Below, one piece after another: positions 33,910-44,712 of a stretch of DNA of 44,712 nt; within the stretch, counting starts at the first letter, position 1, and each line of letters opens with the position of its first letter. Source of the stretch: Desulfobulbus propionicus (lineage in GTDB: Bacteria > Desulfobacterota > Desulfobulbia > Desulfobulbales > Desulfobulbaceae); assembly GCA_002748755.1 (NCBI GenBank), contig PDTD01000024.1, positions 1 to 44,712 of the forward strand, given 5' to 3'. The position numbers were made by a program, and so were the translations under genes. A model generated the notes under the pieces. It was not told where the DNA came from. It made no database searches and saw nothing but the letters and a program-made list of their open reading frames with translations.

Positions 33910-34986
33910 GTGGAAGAAAAAGTAACATTTGGAATATCGCACAAATTGTCAGGAATGCTCCTTACCGTTTCCCTTGTGCCGCTTATGACGGTGTGGTTTC
34001 TCAATTATAAAAACATTACCAGCCTGACCAATGAGAAAGTCGATCAGGGTCTTTATGCCATTAACGAAAACCTTGTGACCTATATCGATGCATGGATCGA
34101 TACAAATGAAAGGATGCTGACCCAAAACAGTACACTTGATGCCATGCGGTCCATGGACCCTTACCTTCAGGAGCCCATTCTTAAATCAATCACAAAATAC
34201 TACGACTGGTCATACCTGACCTTCACTGTTGACACCAAAGGAGATAATATTAGCCGTAGCGATAGTAAACCGCTCAAGTATTATGGTGATCGTTCTTATT
34301 TTAAGCAGGTTACCGGTGGAAAGCAAATTGGCAGACAGTTGCTCATCGGCAAGACTTCAGGTAAACCTGCAATGGTTTTAGCTGCCGGTATATACAACGA
34401 AGACAACATTCTGAAGGGTGTTCTTGCTCAAGCTATGACCCTGGAAAAAGTTTCCGCAAAAATAGTAAACAAGAGCATTGGGGTAACCGGTTATACCTTT
34501 TTGCTGGATGAAAATGGGCTTATTATTGCACATCCTGATGTAGAAATGACCAACTCCAGAATGGATCTCAGCAACCATAATGCTTTTGTCGCCCTCCAAA
34601 ATGGACAGACAAGAACTATTTTTGACGATTTAAATGGAAACAAAATTATTGCTGTTGCCCAAAAAACAGCCCATGGTTTCACAATGATAAGTCAGCAAAA
34701 CTATGAAGAGGCCTACAAAGCAATCAAAGAAGAAAACCAGAAAAATTTTATTCTGTTGGGAGGTACCCTGGTCATGATTATGATCAGTACCATTTTGGTA
34801 TCAAAATGGTTGACCGGACCAATCCGCAATTTGACAAAGGTTGCTAAAAAATACAGCCAAGGGCAACTTGATCTTGAAATAAGCGGCCTCAAACGCAAGG
34901 ATGAGATCGGCCAACTGAGCCGAACTGTTGAACGAATGGGGACAAGTATTCGCCTGGCTATGAAAAAATTACAGAGAAAGAAGTGA
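33910..34986 (+). CDS. Cache-HAMP membrane receptor without an output domain
   Basis: A 358-aa protein from a GTG at 33910 with GGAG 6 bases upstream. TM1 lies at about 14-32 (GMLLTVSLVPLMTVWFL), a double-Cache sensor at about 35-275 (DRSYFKQVTGGKQIGRQLLI, VLDENGLIIAHP-type GYTFLLDENG) and TM2 at about 278-298. A HAMP domain with QLSRTVERMGTSIRLAMKK follows, and the protein then stops. No kinase, cyclase or methyl-accepting region follows in any frame down to 35200, so it is a sensor with no built-in output. It may pair with a separate protein or be a worn-down chemoreceptor. IS relics lie on both sides. Confidence 0.85.
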   Translation: MEEKVTFGISHKLSGMLLTVSLVPLMTVWFLNYKNITSLTNEKVDQGLYAINENLVTYIDAWIDTNERMLTQNSTLDAMRSMDPYLQEPILKSITKYYDWSYLTFTVDTKGDNISRSDSKPLKYYGDRSYFKQVTGGKQIGRQLLIGKTSGKPAMVLAAGIYNEDNILKGVLAQAMTLEKVSAKIVNKSIGVTGYTFLLDENGLIIAHPDVEMTNSRMDLSNHNAFVALQNGQTRTIFDDLNGNKIIAVAQKTAHGFTMISQQNYEEAYKAIKEENQKNFILLGGTLVMIMISTILVSKWLTGPIRNLTKVAKKYSQGQLDLEISGLKRKDEIGQLSRTVERMGTSIRLAMKKLQRKK

Positions 34987-35458
34987 AAAACATAAGGTAA
35001 CAACTCACAAATCTGAGTGACCTAAAAGCAGTCACAGACTGGAAACAATTGAAATTAGAGCGGATTGCTGATGATCATTTTGTCTCTGATCAGCGACAAT
35101 TATCATTCCGGTCTGACGGCATTTTTTCCTCCGGATAATGGCAAAATGATTATTCCGATTCCTCTAAGGAGAAAATGAAATGATCACAGATTATCAGTTA
35201 AGAAAATAGAAGATTTTTTTATCAGAGGGCAAACCCCTTGAAGTCGAGGCCGCAAGATCCGATATGGATGATGCTGTTTCAGTCTTTGCAACGTCAAGCT
35301 CCGTACATTTCAAAGACGAGTCAAAGAGTGGCGTGCACTTCAGGGGTCAGCCCAGGAGGTATATTTCCCCCAGATTTCCCCCCCCCGATAAGTTTTGCCA
35401 GTCGGATTTCACACATATGTCTGATCTAAGAGTGACCCTGAACGGTGCATTGTTTGAA
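34987..35458. other. Gap after the Cache-HAMP gene
   Basis: Contains an imperfect inverted repeat (GATCATTTTG near 35071 and CAAAATGATTA near 35144). There is also an AAGGAG-ATG start near 35178 that gives only nine codons before TAG; the reading continues as SEGKPLEVEAARSDMDDAVSV in another frame, so this may be a broken small gene. No family was recognised. Confidence 0.35.
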
Positions 35459-35536
35459 CATCAGACCTCCTGATCTCTGAAGATTTTGTTAGGACACCAG
35501 TTTGTAAACCAGGCGCAAGTTGGTTCCTGGGAAAAA
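35459..35536 (-). pseudogene. Transposase C-terminal stub and left direct-repeat copy
   Basis: On the minus strand the frame reads FFPGTNLRLVYKLVS and stops at 35491-35489, followed by about 30 bases of IS end. The same block, about 90% identical, occurs in the same orientation at 44542-44617. Only about 15 codons remain here. The IS family is not certain. Confidence 0.7.
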
Positions 35537-35559: not shown

Positions 35560-36325
35560 ATGCGTTGTACCTTAAAAATTTATCCTCCGGTAGCCGGACA
35601 ATCCGCTGCCAATGAAAGCGGTCAGCCACAAACGGATTTAGCGGTTAATGCGATTGATGGGTGTTGAGGCAGTATATCCCAAACCCAGAACCAGTCGTCC
35701 CCATCCCCAGCACAAAGTATATCCCTCTCTGCTGAAGGCATGAACCATCAATCGACCGAATCAGCTGGGGCAACCGATATCACATACATCCCCATGGATG
35801 GCGGATACATGTATCTTGTGGCGATTATGGACTGGCCCAGCCGAAAAATTTTGTCTTGGCGGGTTTCCAACACAGCCGATTCGAGATTTTGCATAAATGC
35901 CCTGGAAGAAGCCATAGACCGTTTTGGCCCTCCTGATATGTTCAATACTGACCAAGGGTCCCAGTTCACCAGCAATGCTGTTGCCCAGGTTCTCCAGGAC
36001 AACCAAGTGGCCATCAGCATGGATGGTCGAGGCCGTTGCCAAGATAATATTTTTGTAGAGCGGTTATGGTGGACCCTTAAGCATCAGTACATTTATCTAC
36101 ACTAATTTGAAAACGGCGGGTCGCTCCGTGTCCGACTTGCCAAGTGGATCGAATACTCCAATTTGGCAAGAGGCCATTCTTCTCTTGAGGACAAAACCCC
36201 GGATGAGGTTTACTTTGCCTTGCCCGTTCGCCGAGGCTGCCTGATGCCTATTTTTACTTTTCTCATCTCAGGGATTGTAGCTTATCCCACCCATCAGGCT
36301 GTCCAATCAATTGGGTCCACCGCCC
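35560..36325 (+). pseudogene. IS3-family transposase second ORF (copy C), broken
   Basis: Covers the integrase core in pieces: GVEAVYPKPRTSRPHPQHK and a TGA near 35740, a shift near 35768, then TDITYIPMDGGYMYLVAIMD (first Asp), NTDQGSQFTS (second Asp) and FVERLWWTLKHQ (Glu). A stop and a shift follow, with SSLEDKTPDEVY at the end. The right end TCCAATCAATTGGGTCCACC matches copies A and B. All DDE residues are present but the frame is broken, so it is inactive. Confidence 0.85.
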
Positions 36326-36570: not shown

Positions 36571-39500
36571 TTATCTTAATTTATTATCATAGACAAGAGT
36601 TCTTTTTTCACCGGGCTGCAATTGAAATTCCATCAACTCTTTCTCTCCTGTACTGTTCATTACTGAGATCATACCAGCAGGTATTGTGATGGACTCATCA
36701 TTTCTCAAGATAAAAATTTCTTCACTCTCACCGGCAATCTGACTTTTTCGTTTAATTATAAACGAAGGCTTTGCTCCCCGTCTGAGTGCCTGAGTAAAAT
36801 CAGATAGACTGCTAACATCGAAATAACTACCGTTACCAAGTAATGCCCATGAACGCATTTCACTTTTTAACTGGGTGTCATCGATTGCAAAACCGATAAT
36901 ATTTACATTGATACCAGCATTTACCAATTTTCGTATTTCTGCAGGAACATCTCCACCACATGTCTCTTCACCGTCGGTTACTAATATAACATTCTTTAAC
37001 ATATCATCATATGTGAAATCATCTGATACTGCTGACAAAGCAGTACCAATAGCAGTTTTTGCATAATTTTCAATATGTATATCATCTATAGTATTTTTTA
37101 ATAGATTTTTATTAAGAGGTTGCTGGTTAATAAGCTTAATAGTTTGACAAGAATCTTTTTTAATTCCAAAAACACGCAACGATAATTTTGTACTATCCTT
37201 AATACCGTAACGGGTTACATTCAAAAGAGCCGATTTTGCAATCGTTATTCTTCTTTTACCGTTTGCCATACGCTTTAGCATTGAGCCAGAACCATCCAAA
37301 ATAACAGCAACAGAACTACGAAGATCGGCATTTTCAATAACCTTCAACTCTATGCTTGCCAAAAGTTTTTTCCGCTCAACAGGTGTGAGTGTAACAGAAA
37401 ACTTATATGGCTTTGAAGCACGGAATATCGCAGAGGCAAGCTCAAAGCCATCATCCAAATGCCATCTTCCTTCTACGATACGCATTACTCCATTGTTAAT
37501 TTTTCCCCAGCTTCTCATCGCATTTGTAAAAAGTTTTTTGTAATTTATGATCGAGAGAGCTACAATTCTAGGCTTCACCTTCTCTGCCAACTCCCAAAAA
37601 CCAGGATCATACTTTGATTCATTATCTGTAATTACTACAATACCAGCCACGCCCGGACGATTCTGTAACATCTTCACAGCTGTAAACATGGTTTTTTCTG
37701 CTTCACTTGAAGAAGTAGGCTCAATTGTATCAATATAGGGCAGAACATCATCCAAAGAACCTGCCCAATTCGACAATATGGGGCTGGCGGCACCAAAAGG
37801 AAGAAGCTGGAGCATATCACGCCCGGGCTGAAGGGATTTTGCCCACTTACGAACAGCATTTATAGTGTACGGAATAAACTCTCTCACACTGTTTGAGGTA
37901 TCCCATGTTATTACTATTGAACGTGGCGGTTCATACACCTTTAAGAAATAGTTTCCAGGAGGGACTGTGGCTCCGTATTGAGCCTGCTGATTTTTTCGCT
38001 TTTTTTGATGTAATTCAATTAGTTTTCCCGTTGAATCCTCAAGATTAAATGATTGTTCAGGTCGTATTGTCTCATGAAAGCTAAGGGTTACATCCATTGC
38101 CTTATCACCTGGGACAGTAAAACTGTACCAGTCTGCATTTCTTTCCAGCTTAACGGAAGATTCAATTTTCTCGTTTAAGGGTATTACGACACTCTCCTCC
38201 TTACTTGCACCACCGGCAATAGTAATTACCTCCATGGTGGAAATATCTGAAATGTCTTCGTAAACAGCTCTGCTGTTTGACTCTTCCCAGGATCCTAGAA
38301 TTGAATGAAATTCTTTTGCTTCAAAAATTTCAAGGGATGCAGGGGGATAGAAAATTTGAGGAGTCTTTTGGACAGGAGTTACAAACTTGATATACTTTGT
38401 CCAAACGGATTTATCCAGTTTAAGAACTCTTGTATTTGTATTTTCTGATTGTAATTTACCAATTTTTTCCCATGGTCCAAACGGTGTTTCTTTTGAAACA
38501 TAAACGTATGTTTCCAGTTGTCGTTGTTCATGCTTATTGTTTTTCCATCTAATTTCATCAATTAGAGCAGTACGGTCACGGTTAAAGGAAAGAACTGTTA
38601 TATTTTCATTTCCTTCATCAAGTTGATGTCCTGAACACGCTCGCGGATTATTCTTACAATTGAGAAATACGTCATTCCAATTCGTGCTAAAAGAAGGTTT
38701 TGAAAAGACGACGTGAGCACCAAAATCGGGATCTGCAAGATTAAATCTTTCTTTAGGTCGCCAATCCCTGTCAGCCAGTAGCTGAAATTCTTCGATAGAT
38801 GGCCCCCATGTGCATTTCGGGTTCAAATGGCAGTCATGAATAATCAATTTTGCCTGGCAGGCAGTAACAACTCGATCAAATATAATATATTGCGGTTGAC
38901 TACTGGCATCCAGTGATCCTGTTGCCACCTTATGCCATCTTCCTACCTCATCTTTTAATTCTATAGAGTAATTATCCGGCCATGTCGCTCTTTCCCGCGA
39001 AGATAAAAGATGAAACATAGCTCCTGCAACTGGAGCTGGTAAGCCAATATTGAAAACCAATTCCTTGCCAGGAGCAGCGGCCTGATCAAAATGATGAAGA
39101 GCAATACCATCGTGAAGGAACCTGCTGCGTTCAACCTTTCGTTCATCGGCTGGCTTTCCGTCAATCTCAATAAGTCTTGAACCTAAACTATCCCATAAAA
39201 CATTTATGCTTCCACGCAGCTCTTCGGGAATAGACCAATAATTTATAAATTCAACATCTTTTACCTGCTGGTTTATCTTTAAGGGCACTATCTTTTTCAT
39301 TTGCTTCCATCCCTGCTGAAAGGCAAATTCCAGGGCTGGATGATTGTTTTCTGCCACAAATGGTGGAATTATAATTTCAAAGGAAATTTCCTTTTTTTCA
39401 CCGGGATCAAGTGTAACTGCTGGCGGGATATCCAGAAGCTTCCAACCATCGGCCAGGAGTCTGCTGTCTATTTTAGTTATTGATCGTTCCACTCCCCTAT

Positions 39501-42084
39501 TTCCGATGGTAAGATTTCCTTTTATCCTCTGTCCAGCTTTTGCGTATGCGCGAATTTGATTCTGCTGTAATTCTACAGAAACATCCAATAGAAGCCTGGC
39601 AGGTATTGGCTGAAAAATCTGCGAATGCATTGAATCATCAATTATAAATCCCGAATATCTTTTTACCTCTTCCTTCATCTTATCTGCAAGAGAACTGGAA
39701 ACACTCGGTAAACTGTTAAAATCAACCAGGCCACAAGTAATAATACCTTTATCTCCTTGCGTTATCTTTATATTTTCTTTGTTATTATTATTTATAATAG
39801 CAAACTTGTATGATTTAGATAAATTAGAGATGGAATTATCGTGATTATAAAGTTTCAATGATTCGTTCGACTCACTATTACATAGTAAAACTCCTTTTTT
39901 ATAATCAGGAATATCAAGTTTTATAAAAATTTTTCCTTTCTTATTTGTTGTAAATTTTTCACCGAGCTTTAAAACAAAGTCTTTTTCTTCTGAGACAGAA
40001 GACACGGGAGTAACATTCAAATCTGGTAAAACCCGTGATTGGCATAAATAATTATTGTTACTATACGACTTATTTTTGAGAAGCAGATATTCTATTTTTT
40101 TTGTGAGGTTTTCATAGATAAAAAGACCAGAACTATTTTTTAAAATATTATCTTTATCACCACCCATCTTCTCCAGTGACCAATTCATCTTTTTTCGAGA
40201 GTCACATGCAGTTAATATAGTTGTGCCAGGCGAAACAGGAATTATGTAATGATTGGAAAAGTTAAAGCTATCAACTACTCCTCGAGCCGCCGAATCCGGT
40301 GGAAATAAACGCCATAGCCCTCTAGAATCATCGGGTTCTTGTACAATTGTTTTATAGTTGAGTGTTGTCTCTATACTGTAGTCGCCCAGTGAATTGTTAT
40401 CGGGAGACTCTATGTGCAAGGTATAATCTCCAGCCGGTAAATTTGAACTGAAGGAAAACGGCTCTTCATCCTCTGGCCCAACAGTAACAGTTCCACCAAC
40501 GACTTGCCCCTGCCCGCTCCCCATGTGTGCATAATTAAGTTGTGCTGTGAGGTTACCGTCATCAGGTGGAGTGATGGTAAAACGGACTGGCTGGCTGCTT
40601 GCAAGGCTCAGGTAATATACGTCTTTATCTGCTTTTGTGCGTAGAACCCCTTTCTTGGTAGTACCAAGATGTAGTCGCTCGGCATTTTCTATGGAATTGT
40701 TTGACTCTTTTTCAAAACCTGGAGTAGGAGCACCAAGTGCTATTGCCCTGAGAGTGTACTGCCCGCTTCCTCTCAGGATAATGGTCTTTGCTCCCCGCAA
40801 AAGGGTAAGATATTCGGATATTACGTTGGTATGTCCTGGTTCTACCGAAAAAAGACGGCGTTTAGATCTGTCATATACTTCGAATTTATCAATATCTCCG
40901 ATAGCTACATACCGCCACAACTCTCCATTTGTTGGTACAATATGGGTAAACACATCTTTATCGCTATGATTCAAATTGCCTTTGACTACAAAATCATTTT
41001 CAAATTGCTTCTTTGCTATAAAATCATTAGGTTCCTGATCGAAGATTTCCCCATCATCAATGTATGGAGACATTGCTATGGAATATCTAATTCCTTCATC
41101 CCCTTGTCCTTCACGGGTAATAGACATTTCATACGTACCAGGTTCCAAGAGAAGATTAGGTATTTCAATCAATCCTTTTTGACTTTTTCTATACAATAAT
41201 CTCTCTATTTTGGGCTCAACTTTAGTAATTTTAACTGAAAAAGAACCACTTTTTGTGTCAGATTCAATTTTCAGGTTTTGTGGTATTGTTTTAACAACAT
41301 CCCAGTTAATTTTATCTACATCCGTTGAAAGAAGAGAACCTCTAATGGTATGATTTAGTTCAACTTTTATACCATGATCAAAACTATTTGGTTCCAGAAG
41401 CTCATCTTCATTGAATTTGGACATATGTATAAGGACATAAGGAAATCGAGCAGTCTTGTTGTAACCAGGTATGACATAGATATAATTATCTTTGTCATAC
41501 ACTTTATCTTTAAATCCAAACACATAAGGATATAAACCAGACTTAGGGATTCTTCCGTTTTTAACCTTAACCTCAACATCTTCTCCTGGTTCCTGATAAA
41601 CAACTATTTTCACTGGCTGTTGTTGAGCAACTGAGGCTTTTATCTTTTTTTTTGTATCTGCCTGAACAACAAGCCATTGATCCAACGAAAGAGTATCTCC
41701 ACCTGTTTTGACAACACTTTTTTCTTTTGACACCGTCAAAGTTGAATCCTGGTTTGCCACTATTCCAAGGACATAGCTGTTTTTGGGTGTAAGAAAGACC
41801 TTTTCTAAGGAGATATTTTGAAGAGCACTGCCTTTTTTCAAAAGTGGAGTAACTCTTTTCTTTTCGCGGTTGGAAACATCTTCTTTGGCAAATAATTGAA
41901 TAGAGCCGGGACTGTTTATATGAAATGAGTAGACCCCCATTTCGGGGGCCTTATACTCAATAAAGATGGGCGTTTGCTTTTTTAGTGTTATCCCCTTTAT
42001 ATCATTTAGCTTTTGTAAGCCCCCCCCGAAGCTATTGGAGACTGATAGAAACAGGAGAAAAATGAAAAACAGGAGAGCCTTCAT
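36571..42084 (-). CDS. Giant exported protein with PPC-like, discoidin-like and tandem VWA domains
   Basis: 1837 aa, from the ATG at 42084 (AGGGGG upstream), one base after the upstream gene's stop. A signal peptide spans residues 1-20 (KALLFFIFLLFLSVSNSFG). Residues about 345-450 and 455-590 are PPC-like beta domains (FDQEPNDFIAKKQF, DKDVFTH, FEKESNNSIENAERL, ADKDVYYLSL), with a third at about 1310-1385. Residues about 985-1105 and 1115-1255 look like discoidin/F5-8C beta-sandwiches, with paired Cys. Two VWA domains close the protein: 1388-1560 with TWDTSNS (1394-1400), and 1590-1770 with ILDGSGSM, TAIGTA and VTDGEETCGGD, so the metal-dependent adhesion site is intact. No LPXTG, TM anchor or secretion tail is seen, so it is probably periplasmic or surface-released. 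It is AT-richer than the core genes. Function unknown. Confidence 0.9.
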   Translation of the reverse strand: MKALLFFIFLLFLSVSNSFGGGLQKLNDIKGITLKKQTPIFIEYKAPEMGVYSFHINSPGSIQLFAKEDVSNREKKRVTPLLKKGSALQNISLEKVFLTPKNSYVLGIVANQDSTLTVSKEKSVVKTGGDTLSLDQWLVVQADTKKKIKASVAQQQPVKIVVYQEPGEDVEVKVKNGRIPKSGLYPYVFGFKDKVYDKDNYIYVIPGYNKTARFPYVLIHMSKFNEDELLEPNSFDHGIKVELNHTIRGSLLSTDVDKINWDVVKTIPQNLKIESDTKSGSFSVKITKVEPKIERLLYRKSQKGLIEIPNLLLEPGTYEMSITREGQGDEGIRYSIAMSPYIDDGEIFDQEPNDFIAKKQFENDFVVKGNLNHSDKDVFTHIVPTNGELWRYVAIGDIDKFEVYDRSKRRLFSVEPGHTNVISEYLTLLRGAKTIILRGSGQYTLRAIALGAPTPGFEKESNNSIENAERLHLGTTKKGVLRTKADKDVYYLSLASSQPVRFTITPPDDGNLTAQLNYAHMGSGQGQVVGGTVTVGPEDEEPFSFSSNLPAGDYTLHIESPDNNSLGDYSIETTLNYKTIVQEPDDSRGLWRLFPPDSAARGVVDSFNFSNHYIIPVSPGTTILTACDSRKKMNWSLEKMGGDKDNILKNSSGLFIYENLTKKIEYLLLKNKSYSNNNYLCQSRVLPDLNVTPVSSVSEEKDFVLKLGEKFTTNKKGKIFIKLDIPDYKKGVLLCNSESNESLKLYNHDNSISNLSKSYKFAIINNNNKENIKITQGDKGIITCGLVDFNSLPSVSSSLADKMKEEVKRYSGFIIDDSMHSQIFQPIPARLLLDVSVELQQNQIRAYAKAGQRIKGNLTIGNRGVERSITKIDSRLLADGWKLLDIPPAVTLDPGEKKEISFEIIIPPFVAENNHPALEFAFQQGWKQMKKIVPLKINQQVKDVEFINYWSIPEELRGSINVLWDSLGSRLIEIDGKPADERKVERSRFLHDGIALHHFDQAAAPGKELVFNIGLPAPVAGAMFHLLSSRERATWPDNYSIELKDEVGRWHKVATGSLDASSQPQYIIFDRVVTACQAKLIIHDCHLNPKCTWGPSIEEFQLLADRDWRPKERFNLADPDFGAHVVFSKPSFSTNWNDVFLNCKNNPRACSGHQLDEGNENITVLSFNRDRTALIDEIRWKNNKHEQRQLETYVYVSKETPFGPWEKIGKLQSENTNTRVLKLDKSVWTKYIKFVTPVQKTPQIFYPPASLEIFEAKEFHSILGSWEESNSRAVYEDISDISTMEVITIAGGASKEESVVIPLNEKIESSVKLERNADWYSFTVPGDKAMDVTLSFHETIRPEQSFNLEDSTGKLIELHQKKRKNQQAQYGATVPPGNYFLKVYEPPRSIVITWDTSNSVREFIPYTINAVRKWAKSLQPGRDMLQLLPFGAASPILSNWAGSLDDVLPYIDTIEPTSSSEAEKTMFTAVKMLQNRPGVAGIVVITDNESKYDPGFWELAEKVKPRIVALSIINYKKLFTNAMRSWGKINNGVMRIVEGRWHLDDGFELASAIFRASKPYKFSVTLTPVERKKLLASIELKVIENADLRSSVAVILDGSGSMLKRMANGKRRITIAKSALLNVTRYGIKDSTKLSLRVFGIKKDSCQTIKLINQQPLNKNLLKNTIDDIHIENYAKTAIGTALSAVSDDFTYDDMLKNVILVTDGEETCGGDVPAEIRKLVNAGINVNIIGFAIDDTQLKSEMRSWALLGNGSYFDVSSLSDFTQALRRGAKPSFIIKRKSQIAGESEEIFILRNDESITIPAGMISVMNSTGEKELMEFQLQPGEKRTLVYDNKLR

Positions 42085-42085
42085 G

Positions 42086-44272
42086 TTAACATCCCCCTTG
42101 AGCTCGATAAGCATCTTCAATAAGACTGTTTCCCTGATCCACCATTAATGAACGAATAAATTTATCGGTAGCACCACCATACATTCCCATCATATCGCCA
42201 AGAATCTGTCCAAACAGAGCAAAGCCTGTAGTGGTTTTTACACAACACTCAGTTGTACAATTCATAATATTCCCTAAAAAACCACTTACAGTCTTTGCCA
42301 TCATTGCAACTCTTGCAACTTCAAGAGTTATAAGGTATTCAAGTGATTCGCCACCTCTGCCATATCCGTCGACCGAGATAGTGTTCCCTGTTGTAGTATT
42401 AATTCTCCACCATCCCTCCCCTGTCTGTGGTAAAAGGAGAAGATGACCAGAGGTGATATCATTTACTGCCCGAGAGCGTATTGCCTTTTTTTCACCTATT
42501 GATGCGGGCAGCTTTCTTTCAGATGTAACCAAACTATAGTTTTTAACCTTTGATAATGTTTTTATCGTACTGACCCTGTTGGCAAAAACCCTTATATATC
42601 GCAGTCTGTCAAGCATTTGCCCCTCTCTAATCGATTGATAGATTCCTAAAGCCATAGTCTGTTTCGGGTCAATACAAAGCCCCTTCTTTTTTCTCGAAAG
42701 AGCCACTGTCCCGCTCTGCATTATATCAAAGCCAGCATGAACCATATCTCCAGGCCCATATAGAAGAGATGAAAGTCCAATAAATGGTTCATGTTGGTAA
42801 GCAAGGAAATGCTTCTCCTCATACGCTCCTGACAGTCCGAGGAAATGCTTAGAAGTAGTCGCACTCTCAATAGGATTGCGAAGCGGCACCTGTTTTCCAT
42901 TACTGTTGTCAGCTACCGTAGTAAGAAGAGTGGTCAAAAAATCTGCTGAATTTCTTGTGCTATTAAAACTAAAAAGCGTCCATGAGCCAAGAAAAGGCAC
43001 TGCTCGATCCTGCTCACTTTTTATAAGCGTTGCAGCATCGACAAGGAGTCTGGTCGTCCGCTTTGTTTTTGCAGCAAAGGGCGGTTTATAATTAACCTCC
43101 AGCCATATCCCATTAAAAATGGTCTTGCTTTCCTCCTTGGTTGCCAACTGTTTTGACATCTCACCAAGAACTCCTGAAATTGTTTCAGAAAAACGGAGTT
43201 GAGGGTTAGCCAGCAAAAGATTTGAGGCAGCTATGGTTTTTCCGTCAGACTTTATAGCGTAACTATATTGAGGGCTTCGGCCATTTATAGCCGGCAGATA
43301 ATAAAAAGAAGATATAAAATCTTTCCTCTTTTCTGGTTTTGTGAGATAAGAATCGCCAATTAAAGTAATAACAGTTGGATATTTTTGGTTGAAAAAAAGA
43401 TCTATATCATGTTTTGGTGTGAGTGTTTTTCGTTCTTCCCTCTCTCCTTTCATGTATGATGCAAATAGACGAATGCTTAAACTATGCCTAACCTTATTGT
43501 CTACCTTCAAGTCAAAAAAAGACTCAGGAGTAAGTTCATCGGCAGGGAGAAAAATGGTGTGTAGGTTTTGCCACTTTGCCCCAGGTTTTTTTCTAAGTTG
43601 CACCCAAACATAATCCTCTGCCCATTTTCTAATCAGTTTTTTGCGTTCCGAATCTCCGGCAATCGATTTTTCTACCTCTCGAGATAATGTATCGCGTAAT
43701 GACGGTATGAGATTACCGCTATTACCATTGTAGCGAGAAGATTTTATAGTAAAATTTATCAGATCATTTGTAAGGTCTGTATTACCTAAGGTAGAGTTGA
43801 GGTGCCCTATTGCCTTTTTAATCTTTTGGCGATTTTTCACCGGGTTTCGCCAGGAACTTGCTCGAGTTGCCTCAAGCAAAGCTTGCAGGTTTTTCCCTTT
43901 TATTTTTGTTCTGGCAAGGCGTACATCATATCCATGTAATTTAAGTATGTTGCCAAGAAGAATAGCCTGATCCCAGGCATTACCTGCACCGGCGGTAAGG
44001 GTACCATTTGCTCCCCTCAACACACCACTATAGAGATGTGGTGATAAGATTTCACCCAGCTTTTTGGTAATAGTATCCGGTGAATCGTTCAGCCATTGTT
44101 CTGCAAGAAGCTGATAATTAAACTGAGTGCTGTCCAGTCCCTTTGCGTATTCACCTAAATATACCTCCCATTTTTCATCGCTACTTTGACCATACACCCT
44201 TGGCACACAGACACCGATCATGCAACAAAGAATACAGTAAAAAAGCAAACTGAACTTACACGTATTATACAT
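42086..44272 (-). CDS. Exported protein with degenerate transglutaminase-like domain
   Basis: 728 aa, from the ATG at 44272 with GGAGG 5 bases upstream. A signal peptide spans residues 1-28 (FSLLFYCILCCMIGVCVPRVYG). Residues about 80-245 follow the transglutaminase fold: GAGNAWDQAILLGNILKLHG aligns with the nucleophile helix, and YVWVQLRKKPGAKWQNLHTI with the His/Asp strands. The catalytic Cys is Ala99, the His is Tyr221 and the Asp is His238, so it is probably non-catalytic. A C-terminal region (about 643-700) has a hydrophobic helix, NCTTECC (672-677) and a final Cys728. It is the first gene of the operon with the VWA protein; their tight spacing suggests a joint complex. No named family was recognised. 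Confidence 0.85.
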   Translation of the reverse strand: MYNTCKFSLLFYCILCCMIGVCVPRVYGQSSDEKWEVYLGEYAKGLDSTQFNYQLLAEQWLNDSPDTITKKLGEILSPHLYSGVLRGANGTLTAGAGNAWDQAILLGNILKLHGYDVRLARTKIKGKNLQALLEATRASSWRNPVKNRQKIKKAIGHLNSTLGNTDLTNDLINFTIKSSRYNGNSGNLIPSLRDTLSREVEKSIAGDSERKKLIRKWAEDYVWVQLRKKPGAKWQNLHTIFLPADELTPESFFDLKVDNKVRHSLSIRLFASYMKGEREERKTLTPKHDIDLFFNQKYPTVITLIGDSYLTKPEKRKDFISSFYYLPAINGRSPQYSYAIKSDGKTIAASNLLLANPQLRFSETISGVLGEMSKQLATKEESKTIFNGIWLEVNYKPPFAAKTKRTTRLLVDAATLIKSEQDRAVPFLGSWTLFSFNSTRNSADFLTTLLTTVADNSNGKQVPLRNPIESATTSKHFLGLSGAYEEKHFLAYQHEPFIGLSSLLYGPGDMVHAGFDIMQSGTVALSRKKKGLCIDPKQTMALGIYQSIREGQMLDRLRYIRVFANRVSTIKTLSKVKNYSLVTSERKLPASIGEKKAIRSRAVNDITSGHLLLLPQTGEGWWRINTTTGNTISVDGYGRGGESLEYLITLEVARVAMMAKTVSGFLGNIMNCTTECCVKTTTGFALFGQILGDMMGMYGGATDKFIRSLMVDQGNSLIEDAYRAQGGC

Positions 44273-44342
44273 GTGAACCTCCGGCATATCGATAAATCAA
44301 TACATAAAATGTATTGGAAAATAAAATCTTCCTGTAGCTATG

Positions 44343-44385: not shown

Positions 44386-44541
44386 TAATAATATCTCAAG
44401 TTCAGAACTCCAAAACTCAGATATCTCGTTCTATCGGTTTATAGCTGTTAAAGGCCTACGATTCTGTTACCGAATTCTAAAAATACCATAAGTTAAGCAG
44501 GGTTCCTGGCTCTTTGGGGTGGATATAGCTACGATACCAAG

Positions 44542-44712
44542 ATCAGACCTCCTGACCGCTGAAGATTTTGTTAGGACACCAGTTTGTAAACCAGACGCAG
44601 GTTGGTTCCTGGAAAAATCGTCTTTGTAGCGTTGAGTTCGTGGAATATATTGAGCATTGTCTCAGCGCTGGCACGGTTTGCCGGTTGATGCAGCTGGACA
44701 ATCAGCTTTTTC
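44542..44712 (-). pseudogene. Transposase C-terminus, partial at window edge, and right direct-repeat copy
   Basis: The minus-strand frame from the window edge reads LHQPANRASAETMLNIFHEL, then TIFPGTNLRLVYKLVS, and stops at 44573-44571. It is open throughout, so the gene may be intact beyond the window; it is called partial. The last about 75 bases match 35459-35536. The family is not firmly assigned (IS4-superfamily-like C-terminus). Confidence 0.65.

What the first reader, a model, noticed from the sequence alone, without database searches (positions are those of the whole stretch)
36571..44272. Two-gene exported operon: dead transglutaminase-like protein plus giant PPC/discoidin/tandem-VWA protein
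Both products carry signal peptides, the genes are one base apart, and the composition is AT-richer than the flanking core genes. Transglutaminase-fold and VWA proteins co-occur in MoxR/VWA/TgpA-type loci, but here there is no MoxR, both proteins are exported, and the transglutaminase domain has lost its catalytic residues. I infer a surface or periplasmic complex for adhesion, matrix binding or assembly, acquired as accessory DNA.
Basis: partly seen in the sequence, partly recalled or inferred. Interest (0 to 1): 0.8.

Follow-up and report, generated by a model that had tools for sequence, protein, structure and literature searches.

The report
Paired exported pseudo-transglutaminase and VWA scaffold
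Two neighbouring bacterial genes make exported proteins, one built on an enzyme fold that has lost its catalytic residues and one a very large multi-domain binding protein; distantly related bacteria keep the two genes side by side, which suggests that the proteins work together in the cell envelope.

Summary
P1 (42086-44272, minus, 728 aa) has a signal-like N-terminus and a transglutaminase-like domain whose Cys, His and Asp positions read Ala99, Tyr221 and His238. P2 (36571-42084, minus, 1837 aa) starts one base after P1's stop and carries PPC-like, Ig-like, discoidin-like and tandem VWA domains, both DxSxS motifs kept.

Seven full-length P1 genes were found: the window, G338 and G296 (one genus), a Haliea MAG, a second genome of its family, a Rhodospirillales MAG and Indioceanicola profundi. 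In 7 of 7 a P2-type gene lies beside P1 or two genes away, in three arrangements. In 140 genomes of the Haliea family both occur in the same two. Three more genomes carry tandem VWA domains and P1's C-terminal domain in one chain. Against: two P2-type genes lack a P1 neighbour.

An OmpA domain in one P2 suggests the periplasm. IS remnants flank the window pair. Inactive transglutaminase domains are known from polymorphic toxins; this partnership was not found in five paper searches. Complex and function are inferred.

The parts
42086..44272 (-). P1: exported 728-aa inactive transglutaminase-like protein
43550..44095 (-). P1 transglutaminase-like domain (about residues 60-241); triad positions A99, Y221, H238
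   Evidence: alignments; Pfam Transglut_core in homologues
42335..42790 (-). P1 conserved C-terminal domain (about residues 495-646, GWWRIN motif), also found in some giant transglutaminase proteins and in VWA fusions
   Evidence: HMM search
42089..42334 (-). P1 cysteine-bearing C-terminal tail (C672, C676, C677, C728)
36571..42084 (-). P2: exported 1837-aa PPC/Ig/discoidin/tandem-VWA protein
40210..41181 (-). P2 PPC-like repeat region (about residues 302-625)
   Evidence: aligns with repeat regions of Haliea, Rhodospirillales and Indioceanicola P2; sub-cut-off PPC match in Indioceanicola at 702-769
39271..39594 (-). P2 Ig-like domain (about 831-938)
   Evidence: model; sub-cut-off FixG_C Ig-like match in Indioceanicola P2
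38770..39102 (-). P2 discoidin-like domain A (about 995-1105)
   Evidence: F5_F8_type_C in homologues, below cut-off; model and fold search
38260..38607 (-). P2 discoidin-like domain B (about 1160-1275), low confidence
   Evidence: model
37924..38172 (-). P2 PPC domain joined directly to VWA1 (about 1305-1387)
   Evidence: PPC match above cut-off in Rhodospirillales P2; alignment
37381..37923 (-). P2 VWA1 (about 1388-1568), DTSNS motif at 1395
36760..37317 (-). P2 VWA2 (about 1590-1775), DGSGS motif at 1597, Cys pair 1646 and 1709
44539..44617 (.). IS-end repeat copy 1 (73 of 79 nt identical to copy 2), overlapping the end of a Transposase_29-like gene (44574-44711, minus; 24.2 bits, below the cut-off of 27)
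35457..35535 (.). IS-end repeat copy 2, same orientation
35740..36105 (+). rve integrase-core transposase fragment

Best explanation
P1 and P2 are the two parts of one exported, probably periplasmic, envelope complex carried on accessory DNA. P1 is a pseudo-enzyme: its transglutaminase-like fold has lost its nucleophile and most likely binds a peptide instead of cutting or cross-linking it. Its conserved C-terminal domain and cysteine-bearing tail complete an anchor or assembly unit. P2 is a long multi-domain arm: PPC, Ig and discoidin modules that bind glycans or wall/matrix material, ending in two VWA domains with intact metal motifs that hold an acidic ligand, most simply P1 itself or a shared target. 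Shown here: the domains, the lost triad, the kept metal motifs, the conserved neighbourhood, and fusion of VWA pairs to the P1 C-terminal domain. Inferred: the physical complex, the peptide-binding role, and the adhesion/scaffold function.
For: P2 beside P1 or two genes away in 7 of 7 full-length P1 loci with changing gene order. Partners were not in the query: Haliea and Rhodospirillales were found through P1, G577 through P1, Indioceanicola through P2. In 140 genomes of the Haliea family, full-length P1 occurs in 2 and P2 in the same 2 (a third genome matched in 185 residues of the repeat region only). Single-chain tandem VWA (Pfam, 3 of 3) plus the P1 C-terminal domain: HMM-supported in G431 and G334, alignment only in G445. 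OmpA domain (E 1.9e-19) in place of VWA2 in the Rhodospirillales P2. Both DxSxS motifs intact in the window P2; a Cys pair in VWA2 of 5 of 5 P2 proteins listed that have one.
Against: No direct evidence of contact. The AlphaFold model of P1 failed (mean pLDDT 35) and no complex prediction was possible. Of the P2-type loci found through P2, G049 and G261 (shorter proteins without the N-terminal array) have no P1 beside them. P1 and P2 identities correlate weakly over 5 taxa (r 0.40; 17 of 120 permutations as good), and the two trees place Indioceanicola differently. In the fusions the transglutaminase HMM gave no hit and the C-terminal HMM did not hit G445; their VWA domains were matched by the G049 P2 in 2 of 3 and by the window P2 in none. 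The partner in G577 is known only from its first 275 residues, before the contig ends. One P2 (Rhodospirillales) lacks VWA2.
Confidence: 0.5

Rival explanations
1. A polymorphic-toxin derivative: P1 is the trunk of an inactive-transglutaminase toxin whose changing C-terminal tail is the effector, and P2 is its presenting adhesin.
For: P1's two domains recur, in the same order, in giant proteins of G128, G132, G164 and G297. The part after the C-terminal domain differs between P1 groups. Inactive transglutaminase domains are described in polymorphic toxins (PMC3482391, passages).
Against: No toxin family matched P1 or P2 at the limits used in Pfam, NCBIfam, PHROGs or PADLOC; no RHS match in P1; by eye no immunity-like gene recurs beside the pair, though neighbours were not clustered.
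Confidence: 0.2
2. A MoxR/VWA/TgpA-like protein-maturation system, moved wholly outside the membrane.
Against: No MoxR recognised among the neighbours scanned; both proteins are exported; TgpA is a membrane protein with an active triad (recalled).
Confidence: 0.05
3. Two independent surface proteins that merely share a mobile element.
For: IS remnants on both sides in the window; two P2-type genes without P1; no congruent trees.
Against: The neighbourhood persists in delta-, alpha- and gammaproteobacterial records with three arrangements, plus fusions.
Confidence: 0.15

Closest known systems
Inactive transglutaminase domains of polymorphic toxins (Iyer et al. 2012, PMC3482391)
   Same: Exported, N-terminal, one or more of the C/H/D triad lost; a peptide-binding anchor role was proposed there (passages read).
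   Different: P1 has no RHS array and no recognised toxin domain; it is a stand-alone protein with a VWA partner gene.
RloB, inactive transglutaminase with 7 TM helices (PMC12239564)
   Same: A catalytically dead transglutaminase domain facing the periplasm (passages read).
   Different: RloB is an inner-membrane protein in an operon with an ATP-grasp protein and a retropepsin-like protease; P1 has no such membrane part and a VWA partner. Homology was not tested.
MoxR/VWA/transglutaminase (TgpA-type) loci
   Same: Transglutaminase-fold plus VWA proteins (recalled).
   Different: No MoxR recognised, no membrane transglutaminase, no active triad.
Tandem-VWA matrix protein PTMP1 of mussel byssus and inter-alpha-inhibitor heavy chain 1
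   Same: Among the best fold matches of the P2 C-half model (4cn9_A, E 4.7e-15; 6fpy_B, E 4.0e-9).
   Different: Animal extracellular proteins; TM-scores over the whole model are low (0.16-0.18), so the likeness is of single domains and their order.

Membership tests
Transglutaminase-like superfamily (PF01841) | Matches the family profile above its curated cut-off (23 bits) | tested here: inconclusive
   Window P1 no match; above cut-off in G338 28.6, G296 30.1, Haliea 25.4 and G577 24.3; below in Indioceanicola 21.8 and Rhodospirillales 18.3
Active transglutaminase/peptidase | Cys-His-Asp triad | tested here: not met
   Cys is Ala or Ser in 7 of 7 P1; His to Tyr and Asp to His in 3 of 7 (window, Haliea, G577); which columns hold the triad is recalled
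Polymorphic toxin with inactive transglutaminase | RHS array followed by a C-terminal toxin domain | tested here: not met
   No RHS or toxin match in P1 or its homologues at the E-value limits used
MoxR-VWA-TgpA system | MoxR AAA+ ATPase gene in the locus | tested here: not met
   only part of the neighbouring ORFs was scanned
VWA (MIDAS) protein | VWA match above cut-off with DxSxS motif | tested here: met
   VWA_2 41.7 bits in two stretches and VWA_3 29.9 bits (cut-offs 27); DTSNS and DGSGS
Discoidin/F5_F8 type C | Profile match above cut-off (28.2 bits) | tested here: inconclusive
   Homologues score 20.4-28.1 bits; supported by fold matches to sialidases with a carbohydrate-binding module
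PPC domain | Profile match above cut-off (25.9 bits) | tested here: inconclusive
   Met by Rhodospirillales P2 (34.5), not by Indioceanicola (22.9); window P2 no match

The most novel reading that the evidence does not exclude
A previously undescribed, mobile two-component envelope system: the trunk of inactive-transglutaminase toxins, stripped of its toxin, has been turned into a pseudo-enzyme receptor that works only with a metal-site VWA scaffold. The split and fused forms are alternative builds of one machine.
Probability: 0.25. Interest if true: 0.7.

Novelty: new variant of a known kind. Interest (0 to 1): 0.5.

Why it matters
It gives dead transglutaminase domains, described in 2012 in polymorphic toxins with a guessed anchoring role, a conserved partner gene and a named, deposited bacterial strain (Indioceanicola profundi) in which their role can be tested directly.

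Tried and rejected
P1 against genome contigs as a single protein found nothing. A viral-contig scan found no relative. Haliea P1 had no plasmid match; Indioceanicola P1 matched only its own record, and Indioceanicola P2 covered 80% or more of itself only in its own record among 102 plasmid records (20 rows seen, all but its own limited to about a tenth of the query). The AlphaFold model of P1 was too poor to search. hhalign did not align the window P1 or the G338/G296 P1 profile with the fusions. A transglutaminase-like stretch that I read by eye in the fusions is not supported (no TG-HMM hit). Gene X of the G338 operon as part of Indioceanicola P2 is only suggestive (no phmmer hit; hhalign E 0.0026, probability 11.5%). 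Co-evolution of P1 and P2 could not be shown with so few taxa. PHROGs and PADLOC gave nothing. A PDB profile search with P1 gave one weak match, E 0.21. Five paper searches for the combination returned none; one search returned two papers, of which passages of one were read. The weak T9SS sorting-tail match lies in the PPC domain and was set aside.
Full report
OBSERVATION. The window is contig C43 of a 2.0-Mb, 44-contig assembly, 90.66% complete. Two minus-strand ORFs fill 36571-44287. P1 most likely starts at 44272 (GGAGG upstream) and P2 follows after TAA-C-ATG. P1 is 728 aa and P2 1837 aa; both begin with a hydrophobic segment, as do 8 of the 13 P1/P2 proteins tested by the same threshold. 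GC is 0.41 and 0.38 against 0.50 for bases 1-33000, but two chemoreceptor-type ORFs are also AT-rich.

DOMAINS. Pfam finds only the VWA domains above cut-off in the window P2 and nothing usable in P1. Relatives supply the rest: Transglut_core reaches its cut-off in 4 of 6 other full-length P1 proteins, and relatives of P2 match F5_F8_type_C (below cut-off), PPC (above it in 1) and an Ig-like family (below it). A model of the P2 C-half (1007 residues, 4 sequences, mean pLDDT 60) matches tandem-VWA PTMP1, sialidases with a carbohydrate-binding module, and inter-alpha-inhibitor heavy chain 1, with low whole-model TM-scores. The P1 model failed (pLDDT 35).

DEAD ENZYME. In an alignment of seven P1 proteins the Cys position is Ala or Ser in 7 of 7. 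His and Asp are kept in G338, G296, Rhodospirillales and Indioceanicola, and become Tyr and His in the window, Haliea and G577. The window P1 has no Cys between the signal segment and residue 533. Loss of the nucleophile is therefore general in this set, and loss of all three residues marks a subgroup. Both VWA metal motifs of the window P2 are intact.

CONSERVED PAIR. P1 alone matched 2 of 96 close relatives (itself and a transglutaminase-only hit) and 9 of 395 genomes of the phylum. One of the nine, G338, has a 758-aa P1 ORF followed by two genes and then an 1130-aa tandem-VWA protein; G296 of the same genus has the same operon. The P1 profile matched 7 of 85 genomes of G338's class, full-length only in G338 and G296. 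P2 matched 11 of 96 close relatives, mostly in VWA2 alone. A scan of genome contigs with the P1 alignment gave three loci: G338's own contig, an uncultured Haliea MAG and a Rhodospirillales MAG. Both new loci have P2 directly before P1 (in the small set of their own ORFs, P2 E 7.5e-129 and 4e-74 to the window, P1 E 9.7e-28 and 2.6e-14). Of 5 plasmid records matched by P2, one, Indioceanicola profundi, matched over 61% of it; there the P1 and P2 ORFs, as called, overlap by 4 bases. In the family of the Haliea genome the P1 profile matched 13 of 140 genomes, full-length only in G544 (Haliea) and G577. G577 has a divergent P2, seen for 275 residues before the contig ends, with a 104-aa ORF between. 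Haliea P2 without its second VWA matched 3 of the same 140: those two, and one in part of the repeat region. In a sample of 385 genomes of the class of the Rhodospirillales MAG only the starting genome matched. So the pair is rare, but 7 of 7 full-length P1 genes have P2 beside them or two genes away.

FUSIONS AND EXCEPTIONS. Proteins of 2025-2030 aa in G431, G334 and G445 have tandem VWA domains (3 of 3). An HMM of the P1 C-terminal domain, run on 414 ORFs, matched them in G431 (E 5.6e-6) and G334 (E 2.3e-4) but not G445, which aligns by eye. The transglutaminase HMM gave no hit there. Both P1 domains also occur in giant proteins of G128, G132, G164 and G297; the 2648-aa G132 protein has Transglut_core, Ig-like, LVIVD and PKD domains and no VWA match. 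Other giants, such as those of G665, G673 and G067, matched only the transglutaminase HMM. G049 and G261 have a shorter P2-type protein with no P1 next to it; elsewhere in them the P1 profile found a 2209-aa frame in G049 and a transglutaminase-only hit in G261.

LOCATION AND MOBILITY. The Rhodospirillales P2 has an OmpA domain (E 1.9e-19) where VWA2 would be, which favours the periplasm; peptidoglycan binding by such domains is recalled knowledge. Two of seven P1 proteins (G577, Rhodospirillales) have further hydrophobic segments in the C-terminal tail, so a membrane contact there is open. In the window the pair is flanked by two same-direction copies of a 79-nt IS end (73 of 79 identical), one overlapping a Transposase_29-like gene end (below cut-off) at the contig end, plus an integrase-core fragment. 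The six other genomes of the genus searched lack P1, three of them incomplete.

MECHANISM. The best-supported reading is a two-part envelope complex: a pseudo-transglutaminase anchor and a metal-site VWA scaffold with glycan-binding modules. Contact, ligand and biological role are inferred.

LITERATURE. Iyer et al. 2012 (PMC3482391; [quoted passage not shown] the term vWA does not occur in the first 300,000 of its 357,715 characters. PMC12239564 (passages) describes RloB, a different periplasm-facing inactive transglutaminase. PMC7159879 (passages) treats MoxR-vWA systems. Five searches for the combination returned no paper, one for inactive transglutaminase in bacteria returned six and one with MoxR two; the library holds open-licence PMC papers only.

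Noticed in passing
window 33910-34986: A Cache-HAMP protein ends after the HAMP domain, before the IS remnants; it may be a chemoreceptor cut by insertion.
   Followed up: no
L104 3344-3895 and 13091-13642: Two 183-aa ORFs that begin identically flank the 2648-aa P1-headed giant of G132, like a duplication or a mobile unit.
   Followed up: no
L111 and L114 (G049:C171): A genome with an unpaired P2-type protein carries a 2209-aa frame that matches both P1 domains, on another contig.
   Followed up: partly
L025 5202-6930: Two extra genes (DUF4412 and an unknown) lie between P1 and P2 in G338 and G296; the unknown one may resemble the N-terminus of Indioceanicola P2.
   Followed up: partly
L080 4015-9720: The Rhodospirillales P2 has an OmpA domain in place of VWA2 and a long extra C-terminal tail.
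   Followed up: partly
L081 5045-13203: The Indioceanicola pair lies on a 1.18-Mb plasmid record whose gene table lists no feature in the stretch.
   Followed up: no
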